Part shown: one piece after another, positions 5,112 to 36,790 of the stretch
Position numbering within the stretch: the first letter of the stretch is position 1
Layout: every line of letters begins with the position of its first letter
From: Spirochaetes bacterium ADurb.Bin133
GTDB taxonomy: Bacteria > Spirochaetota > GWE2-31-10 > MWDO01
Assembly (NCBI GenBank): GCA_002070605.1
Contig: MWDO01000004.1
Coordinates: 72,184 to 111,221, forward strand
DNA: 39,038 nucleotides
Direction: 5' to 3'
The notes under the pieces: generated by a model
What the model saw: the letters and a program-made list of their open reading frames with translations, nothing else
The model's database searches: none
Told to the model about the DNA's origin: nothing
Translations under genes and position numbers: made by a program

Positions 5112-5618
5112 TTAGACGTATTTGGGATAATTTTCAATTGCGAGCTCGTATAATAGCTGTTTTTGAGCGGCGATATTTAACAGTTGTGTCATTTTATCCA
5201 AAAAGTCGTTTTTCAATTTATCGATCCTCAATTTCTTACTAATAAGTTCAAGAAATCCTTCCAACCCATATTTCATAACGCCGTTATAAAAAAACAGTAT
5301 AATATCTCGAACCGTCGAAGCCATACCAAATTCGTTATACAAGGAATGCCATCTTTTTATCCGAAGATAATCCGATTCGCTGATTCTAAGGTATTTATCC
5401 AGCCTTTTATCGTCTGTATTGTCTATAACGGCGTATTCCGAGCGCTGATTTCCTATTATCCCTTTCATTTTTAGAATTTTTTTGTCAATAAGACGAAACA
5501 TCGTTTCAAACAGTTTGCTGAACGTATTAATTTTGAACTCTTTTAGTAAAAAATCTATGACGTTCTTATTCATAGATTCGGATACTATAAAGTGAAATAG
5601 ATGTTTTTTGTTTTTCAT
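5112..5618 (-). CDS. Orphan ~170-aa family protein, copy A
   Basis: 168 aa. One of three paralogues in the window (others at 8858-9373 and 36275-36790). I do not recognise a characterised family. It is charged, helix-rich and soluble, with no signal peptide or membrane segment. The best-conserved block (residues ~75-135) runs YLRISESDY.RIKRWHSLYNEFGMASTVRDII followed by FFYNGVMKYGLEGFLE. That block faintly recalls the multi-copy Leptospira DUF1564 proteins, but this is only an impression. No HxH, DDE or tyrosine-recombinase motif is visible. The start is fixed by an AGGAG site just upstream of ATG. Compared with B and C it lacks the last three residues (YYT) and the inverted end after the stop, so this copy looks eroded. 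Copy-to-copy changes are largely silent, so the protein seems to be under selection. Confidence 0.75.
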   Translation of the reverse strand: MKNKKHLFHFIVSESMNKNVIDFLLKEFKINTFSKLFETMFRLIDKKILKMKGIIGNQRSEYAVIDNTDDKRLDKYLRISESDYLRIKRWHSLYNEFGMASTVRDIILFFYNGVMKYGLEGFLELISKKLRIDKLKNDFLDKMTQLLNIAAQKQLLYELAIENYPKYV

Positions 5619-8857: not shown

Positions 8858-9373
8858 TTACGTATAATAGACGTACCTGGGATAATTTTCGATTACGAGC
8901 TCGTATAGTAAGCGTTTTTGGGCGGTTATATTCAACAGTTGTGTCATTTTATCCAAAAAGTCGTTTTTCAATTTATCGATCCTCAATTTCTTACTAATAA
9001 GTTCAAGAAATCCTTCCAACCCATATTTCATAACGCCGTTATAAAAAAACAGTATAATATCTCGAACCGTCGAAGCCATACCAAATTCGTTATACAAGGA
9101 ATGCCATCTTTTTATCCGAAGATAATCCGATTCGCTGATTCTAAGGTATTTATCCAGCCTTTTATCGTCTGTATTGTCTATAACGGCGTATTCCGAGTGC
9201 TGATTTCCTATTATCCCTTTCATTTTTGGGATTTTTTTGTTAACGAAGCGAAACATAGTTTCAAACAGTTTGCTGAACGTATTAATTTTGAACTCTTTTA
9301 GTAGAAAATCTATGACAGTAGTATTCATAGATTCTGATACTATAAAATGGAATAAGTGTTTTTTGTTTTTCAT
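8858..9373 (-). CDS. Orphan ~170-aa family protein, copy B
   Basis: 171 aa, same family as the genes at 5112-5618 and 36275-36790; no function is recognised. It is full length, ending PRYVYYT. Residues ~60-146 are encoded by DNA that is identical by eye to copy A over 264 bp (8934-9197 against 5179-5442), while the flanking parts differ at many sites. That suggests recent gene conversion. The N-terminal ~55 residues are the more divergent part (for example NTTVIDF and RFVNKKIPKMKG here). An AGGAG site precedes the ATG. The stop codon lies inside the left inverted end of the unit. Confidence 0.75.
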   Translation of the reverse strand: MKNKKHLFHFIVSESMNTTVIDFLLKEFKINTFSKLFETMFRFVNKKIPKMKGIIGNQHSEYAVIDNTDDKRLDKYLRISESDYLRIKRWHSLYNEFGMASTVRDIILFFYNGVMKYGLEGFLELISKKLRIDKLKNDFLDKMTQLLNITAQKRLLYELVIENYPRYVYYT

Positions 9374-15597: not shown

Positions 15598-15618
15598 GCT
15601 CAATAAAATCCCCCGGTT

Positions 15619-15659
15619 CCTCGTCGGGTTTGCGCCCTTTAGGGCGAAACCCGACGAGG
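15619..15659 (-). other. Strong hairpin 8 nt after the lipoprotein stop
   Basis: Arms of 13 bp (15619-15631 with 15647-15659) continue after one bulged base into a 6-bp CGCCCT/AGGGCG stem with a 2-base loop. No T-run follows on the minus strand, so it is a poor terminator. Its placement directly after the candidate variable region is where DGR targets carry the hairpin/cruciform that promotes mutagenic homing. Confidence 0.85.
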
Positions 15660-15667
15660 AGTACCCC

Positions 15668-18586
15668 CTACCGCCTCACAACGCGAAAACCCACGGCATA
15701 GTAAATGTACCACGGGATGCCGTAGTCCCGGTAACCGATTCGACAATCGAAAGGATTACAGTTCCAGCCTCCGCCGCGAACGCACCGGTAAGATCCGCTT
15801 TCCGGACCTATCGGGTCTGGTCCGCTCGGAGTTTCGCCATGCCAGTCCCAGTTCCATTCCCAGACGTTTCCCGACATATCGTATATGCCGAGCTGATTCG
15901 GCTTCTTCATTCCAACGCTATGAGTCGCGTTACCGCTGTTAACGGTATACCACGCTACTTCGTCGCATGCCGCCGCATTGTCATAATTAGCGGATGCGCC
16001 CGAAAAACAATCTAACGGAGTCCAGCTTGACCCGGTTTGATACCGCGCGGCGTACTCCCACTCAGCTTCGGTAGGCAGTCTAAATCCGTCTGCAGCCCAC
16101 TTAACGTAAGGATTATCCTCGCTACCGGGGGTAGTATTAACGCTCTCCGTATTAGTCGACTTTTTCAACAGAGTCGTAAAACTAGAGTTAGTCCAGTAAA
16201 CGGGGGTAAGATCCGGGTCGTTTGTAAGATTGTAATACTCCGTATAGGCGTTGCACCATACTATACAGTCTCTCCAGCTAACATAAGCTACAGGATCGCT
16301 ACTTGTATTACCTCCGCCATATCCCATCTGTCCGGCGTTAGCAAAGGTATAACCGCCGTATGTTGTAGCCCAAGTTTTTACCTCATTCCACAACCCATAA
16401 GTTACCTCGTATTTTCCCATCTTAAACGGAGTGAGAGTAACGCTTGAGCTATCATGCCACATAAAACTCCCCCCCGGAACGGCGACCATAGCTTTTAGAT
16501 CTACTATCCATCTTGCGTATAGGGTCGTATTTGCCGTCTTATCCCAATTCTTAGCGCTCTCCATAGCATCGGTATAATACTGCGTTCCGTCGCTTGTAGC
16601 GTCCCAATATCCGCCAAAGATATAGCCCTCTCTTGTCGGAGCCGCCGCAGTCGGCATTGCAGACCCATAAGTCGCCGTTACGTCGTTTGAACCGCCGGTT
16701 CCGCCCTGCTTGCCAAACGTTACGGTATATATATTGACCGTCCATCTTGCGTATAGAGTCGTATTTTCCGCTTTATTCCAACTCCTCGAGCTCGCCATTG
16801 AAGCGGTATAATACTGCGTCCCGTCGCTTGTGGCGTCCCAATATCCGCCAAAGGTATAGCCCGTCCTAGTCGGCTTGGTCGCGATTGGCATAGCCGCGTC
16901 GTATGTAGCGGTTACGCTATTTGTTCCTCCGCTACCGCCCTGCTTGTCAAACGTTACAGTATATATATTGACCGTCCAATTAGCGGTATATTCTCTATTA
17001 CCCGTCGACCCCTTTGTAATAGTTACAGTCGTATTATTATTCCCCGTTAAACCGCTCCCGCTCCAGCCGACAAAGCTATAACCGGCTTTTGTAGGATTGG
17101 TAAGAGTAATATTCTCGGATTCCACCGTATAACTTGTGGGATTAGCAGCCGTCCCGCCGTTGAGTTTGTAGGTAATACTGTAATTTATGGCAGACCAATT
17201 AGCGGTATAGTTTCTACCGCCTGTCGACCCCTGCGTAATTGTTACAGTCGTATTATTATTCCCCGTTAAACCAGTCCCGCTCCAGCCGACAAAGCTATAA
17301 CCGGCTTTTGTAGGATTGGTAAGAGTAATATCCTCGGATTCTACCGTATAACTTGTAGGATTAGTAGCCGTCCCGCCGTTGAGAGCGTAGCTTATCGTAT
17401 AGGTTGCTAAGGTCGTAGTCGTCGTGGTCGTAGTAGTTGGAGCGATTGTCGTTGTCGACGACGTTGTCGTTGGAGCGATTGTAGTAGTAGACGGAGTAAT
17501 TGTCGTTGTTGTGGTAGTAGTAGACGGTTCTATCGTAGTAGTCGTGGTCGTAGATGATTCGGGATAACCTCCATACGCGGTATCTGAAGAGCTTTTAGTT
17601 ATACCGTCGGATTCAAAATATTCCGAATATATCGTCCAGGTGGCGCTTATAATACCGCCGTTTTCATCGTTATTTGTAATCGTAGTTTTCTTTACATATT
17701 TTCTTTTAACCCCCGCTTCATAAAATTCAGTTTCATTTACTTCCGTAATGGTAGAGGCGTTTGTCGTAGAGTTTATCTTGATCGTTATGTCTATATTTGT
17801 TATTTTTATATAATCAGATAATTTTGACTCATCCGTAGGAGTAATCTTTCCGTCGCTTACCGAAATTATTTTTTCATTTTTAATCAAATTCTCCGTCCAA
17901 CTTACAAGACCGGCGCCCGTATAATTATCTGAAGTTATATCAAATCTTCCGCCGCCGGTATAATCCGAAGGTCCGTAAATCCCCGCGGCCGTCAATGAAA
18001 AAATCGTATGCTCAAAACTACTCGTCATAGATTGGTTCAATTCCCATTTTCCCGCGGTTGAATCGTTATTAACATAGTACGAAACCGTAACTTCTCCAAC
18101 GAGAGTGTCCGTATTGTTCATAACAAGAGGATGTTGAGAATCCTGAAAATATTTTATCACAGTCCCGGAACTACGCGGATTTACGTTTACGAGAACGGGC
18201 CACGACATATACTTGCCGAAATGTCTTTTTATCGTAAAAGAGCCGTCCGATTCTTTTGTCGTTTCAATTTTCGACGCCTTATCGACCTGTTTTATCCCCG
18301 TAAATAAAGGCATCAACAGTTTGCCAATAGTTTTTGTGTCTAAAATATTTGCTCCGCTTCTTGTTTTGTAAATATTTGAGAACAATTTTGTTATAGCGTT
18401 CGGAGAGATATCAACCTCCTTCGTCGAAAATACTGCGGAAGGGATGATCTTCATATTTGCAGACGCATCTACCTCGGAAGTATCTTTATCATCCTCCGTC
18501 GTCTGCCCCTGAGAACAAGAGATCATCCCTATCATTGCCGCGACAATAATAATCTTAATAAAAAAAACAAATCTGATTTTTTTCAA
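15668..18586 (-). CDS. Lipoprotein with InlB-type repeats and FGE/C-type-lectin domain, candidate DGR target
   Basis: 972 aa. It starts at TTG 18586: AGGAGG (18594-18599) is 7 nt upstream, giving LKKIRFVFFIKIIIVAAMIG and a lipobox MISC with Cys24. Residues ~25-345 are an unfamiliar beta-rich domain and ~346-395 a Thr-rich linker. Four InlB/Listeria-Bacteroides-type repeats follow at ~396-695 in two pairs (GYSFVGWSG and GYTFGGYWDA types). The C-terminal FGE/sulfatase-modifying-factor domain (~698-972) has MGKYEVTYGLWNEV, GFRLPTEAEWEYAAR and GIYDMSGNVWEW. The extreme C-terminus resembles the variable region of treponemal DGR proteins such as TvpA. Two cysteines spaced C-x4-C recall true FGE, but the following segment is shorter, so ligand binding is likelier than catalysis. 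GC content looks higher than in its neighbours. Confidence 0.85.
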   Translation of the reverse strand: MKKIRFVFFIKIIIVAAMIGMISCSQGQTTEDDKDTSEVDASANMKIIPSAVFSTKEVDISPNAITKLFSNIYKTRSGANILDTKTIGKLLMPLFTGIKQVDKASKIETTKESDGSFTIKRHFGKYMSWPVLVNVNPRSSGTVIKYFQDSQHPLVMNNTDTLVGEVTVSYYVNNDSTAGKWELNQSMTSSFEHTIFSLTAAGIYGPSDYTGGGRFDITSDNYTGAGLVSWTENLIKNEKIISVSDGKITPTDESKLSDYIKITNIDITIKINSTTNASTITEVNETEFYEAGVKRKYVKKTTITNNDENGGIISATWTIYSEYFESDGITKSSSDTAYGGYPESSTTTTTTIEPSTTTTTTTITPSTTTIAPTTTSSTTTIAPTTTTTTTTTLATYTISYALNGGTATNPTSYTVESEDITLTNPTKAGYSFVGWSGTGLTGNNNTTVTITQGSTGGRNYTANWSAINYSITYKLNGGTAANPTSYTVESENITLTNPTKAGYSFVGWSGSGLTGNNNTTVTITKGSTGNREYTANWTVNIYTVTFDKQGGSGGTNSVTATYDAAMPIATKPTRTGYTFGGYWDATSDGTQYYTASMASSRSWNKAENTTLYARWTVNIYTVTFGKQGGTGGSNDVTATYGSAMPTAAAPTREGYIFGGYWDATSDGTQYYTDAMESAKNWDKTANTTLYARWIVDLKAMVAVPGGSFMWHDSSSVTLTPFKMGKYEVTYGLWNEVKTWATTYGGYTFANAGQMGYGGGNTSSDPVAYVSWRDCIVWCNAYTEYYNLTNDPDLTPVYWTNSSFTTLLKKSTNTESVNTTPGSEDNPYVKWAADGFRLPTEAEWEYAARYQTGSSWTPLDCFSGASANYDNAAACDEVAWYTVNSGNATHSVGMKKPNQLGIYDMSGNVWEWNWDWHGETPSGPDPIGPESGSYRCVRGGGWNCNPFDCRIGYRDYGIPWYIYYAVGFRVVRR
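15686..15790 (-). other. Candidate DGR variable region
   Basis: These codons run from the Tyr before RCVRGGGW to GFR near the stop. Candidate variable positions between the fixed W, CR, R, P and GFR landmarks are N C N P F D, I G Y, D Y G I and Y I Y Y A. Every one of these codons ends in C or T, as expected if they derive from AAY codons of a template repeat by adenine mutagenesis. Seven of them (Pro, Ile x3, Gly x2, Ala) could have ended in A or G. No template repeat or reverse transcriptase is in the window. Confidence 0.5.
16507..16974 (-). repeat. Two tandem 234-bp repeats (InlB-type repeats 3 and 4)
   Basis: 16507-16740 and 16741-16974 are similar direct repeats with a 234-bp period, encoding the two repeats with the FGGYWDATSDGTQYYT core. 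They are a possible substrate for recombination that changes repeat number. Confidence 0.8.
16978..17383 (-). repeat. Two 187-bp direct repeats (InlB-type repeats 1 and 2)
   Basis: 16978-17164 and 17197-17383 are near-identical, 219 bp apart start to start, and encode repeats with KAGYSFVGWSG. They are more alike than repeats 3 and 4, suggesting recent duplication or conversion. Confidence 0.8.
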
Positions 18587-18729
18587 TTTTTTTCCTCCTA
18601 AAAAATAATTATATCTATATAAACCGTCCAAGACGGCTATACGCTTGCGAAGAATAAACGATTATTGTACTTCTTATTGAATATAAATTGATGATAAATG
18701 CTAGAAATGAAAATATTTGCGAAAATTTC

Positions 18730-18757
18730 TTGACAATTAGGCGAAAATCCTTATAAT
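18730..18757 (+). promoter_or_regulatory. Consensus sigma-70 promoter facing a heptamer repeat
   Basis: TTGACA (18730-18735), 16 bp, TATAAT (18752-18757): both boxes are perfect. The -10 box runs straight into the tandem repeat. It points away from the lipoprotein gene, and no convincing gene starts before plsC at 19231, which has its own promoter. Possible products are an untranslated RNA or a long plsC leader. This lies in the 644-base gene-free stretch 18587-19230. Confidence 0.6.
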
Positions 18758-18803
18758 CTCTTGTCTCTTGTCTCTTGTCTCTTGTCTCTTGTCTCTTGTC
18801 TCT
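18757..18803 (+). repeat. Heptanucleotide tandem repeat TCTCTTG x6.7
   Basis: Six perfect TCTCTTG units (18757-18798) are followed by TCTCT. The tract begins at the last base of the -10 box of the promoter at 18730-18757 and lies ~170 bp upstream of the divergent lipoprotein start. Perfect short repeats of this kind mutate in copy number by slippage. Confidence 0.9.
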
Positions 18804-18912
18804 GCGAACATTCGGACTCCTCGCCGGAAGATTTAGAATATTCTAGTTTAGAATTTATTTGTTGTCAATATTTTTTTGATAATATTTTATTTTTAAATAT
18901 TTTTTTATTTTT

Positions 18913-36274: not shown

Positions 36275-36790
36275 TCACGTATAGTAGACGTATTTGGGAT
36301 AATTTTCGATTATGAGCGCGTATAATAGTTGTTTTTGGGCAGTCATATTTAACAGTTGTGTCATTTTACCCAAAAAGTCGTTTTTCAACTTATCAATCCT
36401 TAATTTCTTACCAACGATCTCAAGAAATCCTTCCAACCCGTATTTCATAACGCCGTTATAGAAAAACAGTATAATATCGCGAACCGTCGAAGCCATACCG
36501 AATTCGTTATACAAAGAATGCCATCTTTTTATTTGAAGATAATCCGATTCGCTGATTCTAAGGTATTTATCCAACCTTTTATTGTCTGTATTATCTATAA
36601 CGGCGTATTCAGAGCGATGATTTCCGATTATTTTCTTCATTTTTGAGATTTTTTTGTCAATAAGGCGAAACATAGTTTCAAATAACTCGCTGAACGTATT
36701 AATTTTGAACTCCTTTAGTAGAAAATCTATGACGTTATTATTCATAGACTCTGACACGATAAAGTGAAATAAATGTTTTTTGTTTTTCAT
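36275..36790 (-). CDS. Orphan ~170-aa family protein, copy C
   Basis: 171 aa, the most divergent of the three copies but still closely similar to the genes at 5112-5618 and 8858-9373. Many differences are third-base changes, suggesting selection on the protein. Unique residues include ISKMKKIIGNH, ESDYLQIKRW, LEIVGKKLRID and LLYALIIENYPKYVYYT. No domain with known function is recognised. An AGGAG site precedes the ATG and an AT-rich leader common to all copies lies upstream. Confidence 0.75.
   Translation of the reverse strand: MKNKKHLFHFIVSESMNNNVIDFLLKEFKINTFSELFETMFRLIDKKISKMKKIIGNHRSEYAVIDNTDNKRLDKYLRISESDYLQIKRWHSLYNEFGMASTVRDIILFFYNGVMKYGLEGFLEIVGKKLRIDKLKNDFLGKMTQLLNMTAQKQLLYALIIENYPKYVYYT

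What the first reader, a model, noticed from the sequence alone, without database searches (positions are those of the whole stretch)
15619..15790. Lipoprotein C-terminus looks like a diversity-generating retroelement (DGR) target working in trans
Seen: the last ~40 codons have the fixed landmarks of an FGE-type C-type-lectin variable region (RGGGW, CR, R, P, GFR). All ~18 intervening codons end in C or T, including seven (Pro, Ile, Gly, Ala) that could have ended in A or G in a genome that favours A. A 13+6-bp hairpin lies 8 nt after the stop. Known: DGRs copy a template repeat into a variable region with adenine mutagenesis, so AAY codons become NNY. A hairpin or cruciform just downstream helps homing, and T. 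denticola TvpA is a DGR lipoprotein with this fold. Inferred: a remote reverse transcriptase and template diversify this gene. Caveat: ordinary FGE-fold proteins share the landmarks.
Basis: partly seen in the sequence, partly recalled or inferred. Interest (0 to 1): 0.8.

Follow-up and report, generated by a model that had tools for sequence, protein, structure and literature searches.

The report
Orphan hypervariable surface lipoprotein (retroelement footprint)
The tail of this bacterial surface protein bears the footprint of a known gene-diversifying retroelement that a same-genus relative still carries complete, but the enzyme and template are absent from this genome's assembly, so it is most likely a leftover (or a remotely served target), a pattern already described in Treponema denticola.

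Summary
Better evidence came from relatives.

(1) A genome of the same genus carries a complete DGR: HRDC protein, Avd, RT, template, and a target built like the window protein (InlB repeats plus TvpA/FGE-like C-type lectin). All 23 template-to-target differences are at template adenines.

(2) This genome has two further close paralogs and a pseudogene. Laid ungapped on the relative's template, the three intact paralogs differ at 60-67% of template-adenine positions, against 10-15% at body codon positions 1-2. Third positions in the same codons differ at the body rate. An ordinary FGE ortholog pair shows 20%.

(3) TvpA is the best PDB match by sequence and by fold.

No DGR RT, Avd, HRDC or template was found in the 95.6%-complete assembly; its only RT is an RT-Cas1 fusion. 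Because third positions are not homogenised, recent copying of all three genes from one shared template is unlikely. I conclude that this is a genuine DGR target footprint, probably relict, less probably served by an unassembled element. Trans activity is undemonstrated. Orphan targets are known in T. denticola.

The parts
15668..18631 (-). Target-type lipoprotein gene (987 aa from the first TTG; likelier start TTG at 18584-18586 after AGGAGG): lipoprotein signal, Thr-rich linker, InlB-type repeats, C-terminal FGE/TvpA-like C-type-lectin domain
   Evidence: ORF and translation; Pfam Flg_new, Flg_new_2, FGE-sulfatase; the lipobox-like MISC is read from the sequence
15674..16495 (-). TvpA/FGE-like domain (residues 713-986)
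   Evidence: PF03781 E=4.8e-35; best PDB sequence match 2y3c TvpA E=3e-27; AlphaFold2 pLDDT 84, best fold match 2y3c E=1.5e-18
15683..15778 (-). Variable region from RGGGW to GFR; hypervariable codons 15692-15763
   Evidence: Aligns ungapped with the template repeat of the same-genus DGR (G002); paralog differences concentrate at its adenine positions
15671..15691 (-). Conserved end of the variable region and last codons (position of an IMH-like element)
   Evidence: Nearly invariant between the intact paralogs C1 and C22; the window copy carries CTT>GTT and GTC>GTG changes; the role is inferred
15618..15660 (-). Long hairpin 7-8 nt after the stop (CCTCGTCGGGTTT arms plus inner GCCC-TAAA-GGGC stem)
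   Evidence: this hairpin family occurs 4 times in the genome, 3 of them directly after these paralogs' stops; the G002 DGR target has an unrelated-sequence hairpin of similar layout
16496..17395 (-). InlB-type repeat array, two pairs of repeats (234 nt and 219 nt periods)
18703..18876 (-). Conserved leader: promoter-like TTGACA...TAGAATAT and a 7-bp tandem repeat (18757-18803)
   Evidence: 82-84% identical to leaders of paralog C1 and of the G002 DGR target; also before an unrelated lipoprotein operon, so not DGR-specific

Best explanation
The last ~30 codons are the variable region (VR) of a TvpA-like surface lipoprotein, rewritten in the past by a diversity-generating retroelement. A DGR reverse transcriptase copied a template repeat, put random bases at template adenines, and the copy replaced the VR, turning AAY codons into NNY. 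The family was then duplicated or spread to at least four loci, and the RT/template cassette is now absent from the assembled genome. Most likely it was lost, so the VRs are fossils drifting like the rest of the gene; less likely it sits on an unassembled or separately binned replicon. Shown: fold and architecture, a complete homologous DGR in the same genus, excess variation confined to that template's adenine positions, and absence of RT/Avd/template from the assembly. Inferred: that retrohoming made the variation, that the element was lost, and that the hairpin once aided homing.
For: G002 (same genus) contig C160: target with InlB repeats and FGE domain, then HRDC protein, Avd (PF22296), 328-aa RT (PF00078) and template; 23/23 template-to-VR mismatches at adenines. 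G000 paralogs at that template's AAY codons, positions 1+2: 18/30, 20/30 and 18/30 differ, against 48/478, 72/476 and 72/476 in the body (p=3e-10 to 1e-7). Third positions of the same codons: 4/15, 3/15, 3/15, like the body (p 0.3-1). Within the VR, template-A versus other columns p=3e-5 to 2e-7. Ordinary FGE ortholog pair C58/C336: only 6/30 against 28/300. TvpA is the top PDB hit by sequence and fold. No DGR RT, Avd, HRDC or template in the own genome although the same query finds them in G002. Precedent: T. denticola isolates without RT/template keep target genes judged to be leftovers (PMC4891356).
Against: No template or RT of its own, so adenine-directed change is inferred through a relative's template. 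Extreme diversifying selection on the same loops could mimic part of the signal. One masked codon in C22 (CAG) and the conserved TGG in all copies do not fit AAY>NNY. The three paralogs give only two independent contrasts. The assembly lacks about 4%, so loss is not proven. C/T-ending codons and hairpins are common in FGE tails and in this genome.
Confidence: 0.7

Rival explanations
1. Active in trans: an RT/template cassette lies in the unassembled ~4% of the genome or on a plasmid or phage not binned with it, and still diversifies this gene and its paralogs at unlinked loci.
For: Completeness is 95.6% in 103 contigs; two paralogs lie at contig ends (C1, C22); remote targets occur in T. denticola DGRs; a same-genus relative has a complete DGR and a second, remote, degenerate VR (C391).
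Against: Third positions of the VR codons differ between paralogs at the body rate, whereas recent copying from one template should have made them near-identical, as in some other FGE paralog pairs (third-position differences 0-0.13 against 0.28-0.33 in the body). The window VR end has drifted. No RT, Avd, HRDC or template in the assembly.
Confidence: 0.18
2. No DGR was ever involved: an ordinary TvpA/FGE-fold binding protein family whose exposed loop residues diverged by point mutation under diversifying selection.
For: FGE tails are naturally rich in residues with C/T-ended codons (30/82 control tails as extreme); loops also evolve about twofold faster in an ordinary pair (C58/C336); no RT in the assembly.
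Against: The excess is four- to sixfold, limited to codon positions 1-2 of exactly the codons that are AAY in a same-genus DGR template, with no third-position excess, and 41 of 42 masked non-Trp codons are NNY against 57% in the body. The homologous protein in the sister species is a genuine DGR target.
Confidence: 0.12

Closest known systems
Treponema denticola DGR and its variable lipoprotein TvpA (PDB 2y3c), including remote targets and targets left in isolates lacking RT/template (PMC4891356)
   Same: Spirochaete-type surface lipoprotein; best sequence and fold match; C-terminal VR; HRDC/accessory/RT layout found in the sister genome; precedent for orphan targets without RT
   Different: No RT or template found here; InlB-type repeat array between lipid anchor and lectin domain; VR not close to any template held; a different genus-level lineage
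Complete DGR on contig C160 of the same-genus genome G002
   Same: Target with InlB repeats and FGE domain, a conserved leader, ungapped VR/template register, hairpin after the target's stop
   Different: G002 has RT, Avd, HRDC and template in cis; its template ends in a different sequence (LQV...PNNE...FRIA) and its hairpin sequence is unrelated
Bordetella phage BPP-1 DGR (target recognition: IMH and hairpin, PMC3240598)
   Same: Hairpin just downstream of the variable region
   Different: Here 13+6-bp stem and TAAA loop instead of 7-10 bp and GRNA; no RT
Formylglycine-generating enzymes and ordinary FGE-fold proteins
   Same: Same Pfam family PF03781 and landmarks
   Different: Weaker sequence and fold match than TvpA; ordinary FGE orthologs C58/C336 show no position 1-2 hypervariation

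Membership tests
DGR (complete system) | DGR-type reverse transcriptase | tested here: not met
   Only RVT_1 match in the own genome is an RT-Cas1 fusion; the G002 RT query finds nothing in G000 but its own locus in G002. Assembly 95.6% complete.
DGR (complete system) | Template repeat matching the VR except at adenines | tested here: not met
   blastn with the VR finds only the paralogs; N-R-N-N-N-N-P template pattern has no meaningful hit.
DGR (complete system) | Accessory protein Avd or HRDC | tested here: not met
DGR target gene (TvpA-type variable protein) | C-type-lectin fold with C-terminal VR | tested here: met
   Pfam, PDB sequence and fold searches, TvpA first.
DGR target gene (TvpA-type variable protein) | Variation concentrated at template-adenine positions (AAY>NNY) | tested here: met
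   Tested on paralogs with the same-genus template as mask: 60-67% against 10-15% at codon positions 1-2, no third-position excess. Indirect, because the own template is not held.
DGR target gene (TvpA-type variable protein) | Homing hairpin just downstream of the VR | tested here: inconclusive
   Hairpin present and shared by the three intact paralogs, but such inverted repeats are common here and follow an ordinary FGE gene too.
DGR target gene (TvpA-type variable protein) | Rewriting in the living population | not testable with these tools
   One genome per species; no reads or strains held.

The most novel reading that the evidence does not exclude
An RT/template on an unassembled mobile element still serves three unlinked surface lipoproteins in this spirochaete-like lineage, and the 7-bp-repeat leader shared by at least two of these genes could switch their expression: a trans DGR combined with phase variation of its targets.
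Probability: 0.12. Interest if true: 0.6.

Novelty: new member of a known kind. Interest (0 to 1): 0.35.

Why it matters
It is a datable case of DGR targets outliving their retroelement. The third codon positions act as a clock for the last copying event, and a sister species with the complete system gives the comparison. It also shows that C/T-ended codons and a hairpin next to an FGE tail are not enough to call a DGR target; close paralogs or a relative's template are needed.

Tried and rejected
C/T-ending codons as evidence: rejected as non-specific after 82 control tails. Hairpin as evidence: weakened, since one of the four copies follows an unrelated gene remnant (C22:2928) and other intergenic inverted repeats abound. 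The RT-Cas1 fusion on C37 as DGR RT: rejected, it is a CRISPR-type RT fusion. The template-like hit on C8 (one mismatch): its surroundings were read and hold no template-like repeat. IMG/VR scans for the inferred template ending and for the hairpin: no hits. IMG/VR scan for close relatives of the G002 RT: only 27-38% identical ones. The conserved leader as a DGR-specific mark: rejected, it also precedes an unrelated lipoprotein operon. Rfam: nothing in the window.

Full report
What is there. The gene at 15668-18631(-) encodes a probable lipoprotein (MISC lipobox-like motif, read from the sequence) with a Thr-rich linker, four InlB/Listeria-Bacteroides-type repeats and a C-terminal FGE-sulfatase (PF03781) domain, residues 713-986. 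Of 20 non-landmark codons between RGGGW and GFR, 18 end in C or T; the exceptions are TGG and GTG. A hairpin with arms at 15618-15631 and 15647-15660 begins 7-8 nt after the stop. The domain is closer to the known DGR protein TvpA of Treponema denticola than to any formylglycine enzyme, both by sequence (2y3c, E=3e-27) and by the fold of an AlphaFold2 model (pLDDT 84; 2y3c first, E=1.5e-18).

Weakness of the original argument. I extracted FGE tails of the same length from related genome and viral contigs. Of 82 with no DGR RT on the fetched locus, 30 have at least 14 of 15 C/T-ended codons at the same positions as the window gene (14/15). Some of these may be remote DGR targets themselves, but C/T-ending in one sequence cannot carry the claim. 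The hairpin is also weak evidence alone: six perfect >=11-bp intergenic inverted repeats occur in this 39-kb window, and an ordinary FGE gene on contig C58 is followed by a similar long inverted repeat.

The relatives decide. The only other genome of the same genus that is held (G002) has, on contig C160, a complete DGR. It has a target protein of the same make-up (InlB repeats, FGE domain), an HRDC protein, Avd (PF22296), a 328-aa RT and a template repeat. In register over 122 nt, all 23 differences between template and VR are at template adenines (A>T 13, A>G 8, A>C 2). Another genome of the same family (G003) has a DGR RT with a different template type.

The own genome. G000 holds, besides the window gene, two close intact-tail paralogs (C1:458-1279, 78%; C22:1294-2115, 71%) and a broken copy on C30. 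The G002 template aligns to the three VRs without a gap over 28 codons. I used its 15 AAY codons as a mask set independently of the G000 sequences. At positions 1+2 of the masked codons the pairs C4-C1, C4-C22 and C1-C22 (C4 is the window gene) differ at 18/30, 20/30 and 18/30 sites, against 48/478, 72/476 and 72/476 in the domain body (p=3.1e-10, 1.6e-9, 9.7e-8). Third positions of the same codons differ at 4/15, 3/15 and 3/15, indistinguishable from the body (p=0.31, 1.0, 1.0). Sliding the same mask along the body never reaches these values (maximum 9, 13 and 15). The three pairs come from three genes, so they are two independent contrasts. The negative control, an ordinary FGE ortholog pair (G000 C58 / G002 C336), gives 6/30 in the tail against 28/300 in the body, with third positions 4/15 against 38/150. 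Across all fetched FGE pairs with 75-90% body identity, most fall into a low class (tail positions 1+2 at or below about 0.3) or a high class (0.47-0.8); the G000 pairs belong to the high class. Ordinary point mutation is expected to change third positions at least as fast as positions 1-2; here the excess is confined to positions 1-2 of the predicted codons, which is what adenine mutagenesis of AAY codons produces.

No machinery found. PF00078 finds one RT in G000, in a 977-aa ORF that I read as a Cas6-RT-Cas1-type fusion (the Cas parts were not tested by a domain search). A joined query of the G002 RT, Avd and HRDC proteins finds nothing in G000 at E<=10 but finds all three in G002. blastn with the VR finds only the paralogs, and template-type patterns give no credible hit. 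The three intact paralogs are each flanked by unrelated genes. The assembly is 95.6% complete in 103 contigs, so absence is likely but not proven.

Active or relict. Copying from one template resets non-adenine bases. Third-position differences in the VR codons (0.20-0.27) are as large as in the body (0.19-0.27), unlike some other FGE paralog pairs where they are 0-0.13 against 0.28-0.33. The window copy has also drifted at the end of the VR (ATT/CTT>GTG, CTT>GTT, GTC>GTG relative to the other two). Recent rewriting of all three genes from a common template is therefore unlikely. Either the element was lost after the family spread, or different templates serve different genes. G002's second, remote VR (C391) shows similar drift, and G001, in which no RT was found, also has a C/T-ended TvpA-like tail.

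Comparison with the known. T. denticola is a direct precedent: 9 of 17 assembled genomes had complete DGRs, some targets were remote from the core, and isolates without RT or template kept target genes that the authors judged to be leftovers (PMC4891356). The hairpin differs from the phage DGR consensus of PMC3240598 (7-10 bp stem, GRNA loop). I therefore file the gene as a member of the known kind 'DGR target gene, orphaned', and do not call it a DGR system, because RT and template were tested and not found.

Noticed in passing
window 18703-18876 (7-bp repeat 18757-18803): Promoter-like leader with a 7-bp tandem repeat (6.7 copies), 79-88% identical to stretches at C2:14372, the C89 contig end and C1 in this genome, and before the G002 DGR target; the repeat unit differs between copies, which could allow phase variation.
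   Followed up: partly
L001 (G000:C37:7453-8064): The genome's only RVT_1 reverse transcriptase lies in a 977-aa ORF that reads as a Cas6-RT-Cas1 fusion beside a cas2-like ORF, suggesting CRISPR spacer acquisition from RNA.
   Followed up: no
L013 2928-2966 (G000:C22): Fourth copy of the CTCGTCGGG hairpin follows the 3' remnant of an unrelated gene, about 750 bp from a VR gene.
   Followed up: partly
L015 4980-5860 (G000:C30): Broken fourth copy of the target gene: truncated start, in-frame stop, VR with one extra codon, hairpin absent and VR end fused to other sequence.
   Followed up: partly
L123 (G002:C391:2069-2839): Second, remote VR-bearing gene in the DGR-positive relative (GGSYSSSFIYLFIGLRRNTTPISEYNDIGFRIA), degenerate relative to that genome's template.
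   Followed up: partly
L108 (G003:C115): A DGR in a family relative with another kind of template (WSSSSNNNNNAWNQNFNSGNQNNNNKNNQNSVRAV) and matching target; the same genome gives 26 FGE-domain matches.
   Followed up: no
L171, L179, L192, L228, L229 (IMG/VR contigs): Close FGE paralogs on viral contigs with body 74-88% identical and tails mostly saturated at codon positions 1-2 but nearly fixed at position 3: likely DGR targets, with no DGR RT detected on the fetched stretch.
   Followed up: no
window 5113-5412, 8868-9167, 36285-36584: Three 91-96% identical copies of a ~300-nt stretch inside small ORFs (168-171 aa), with shared upstream sequence; recent paralogs of unknown function.
   Followed up: no
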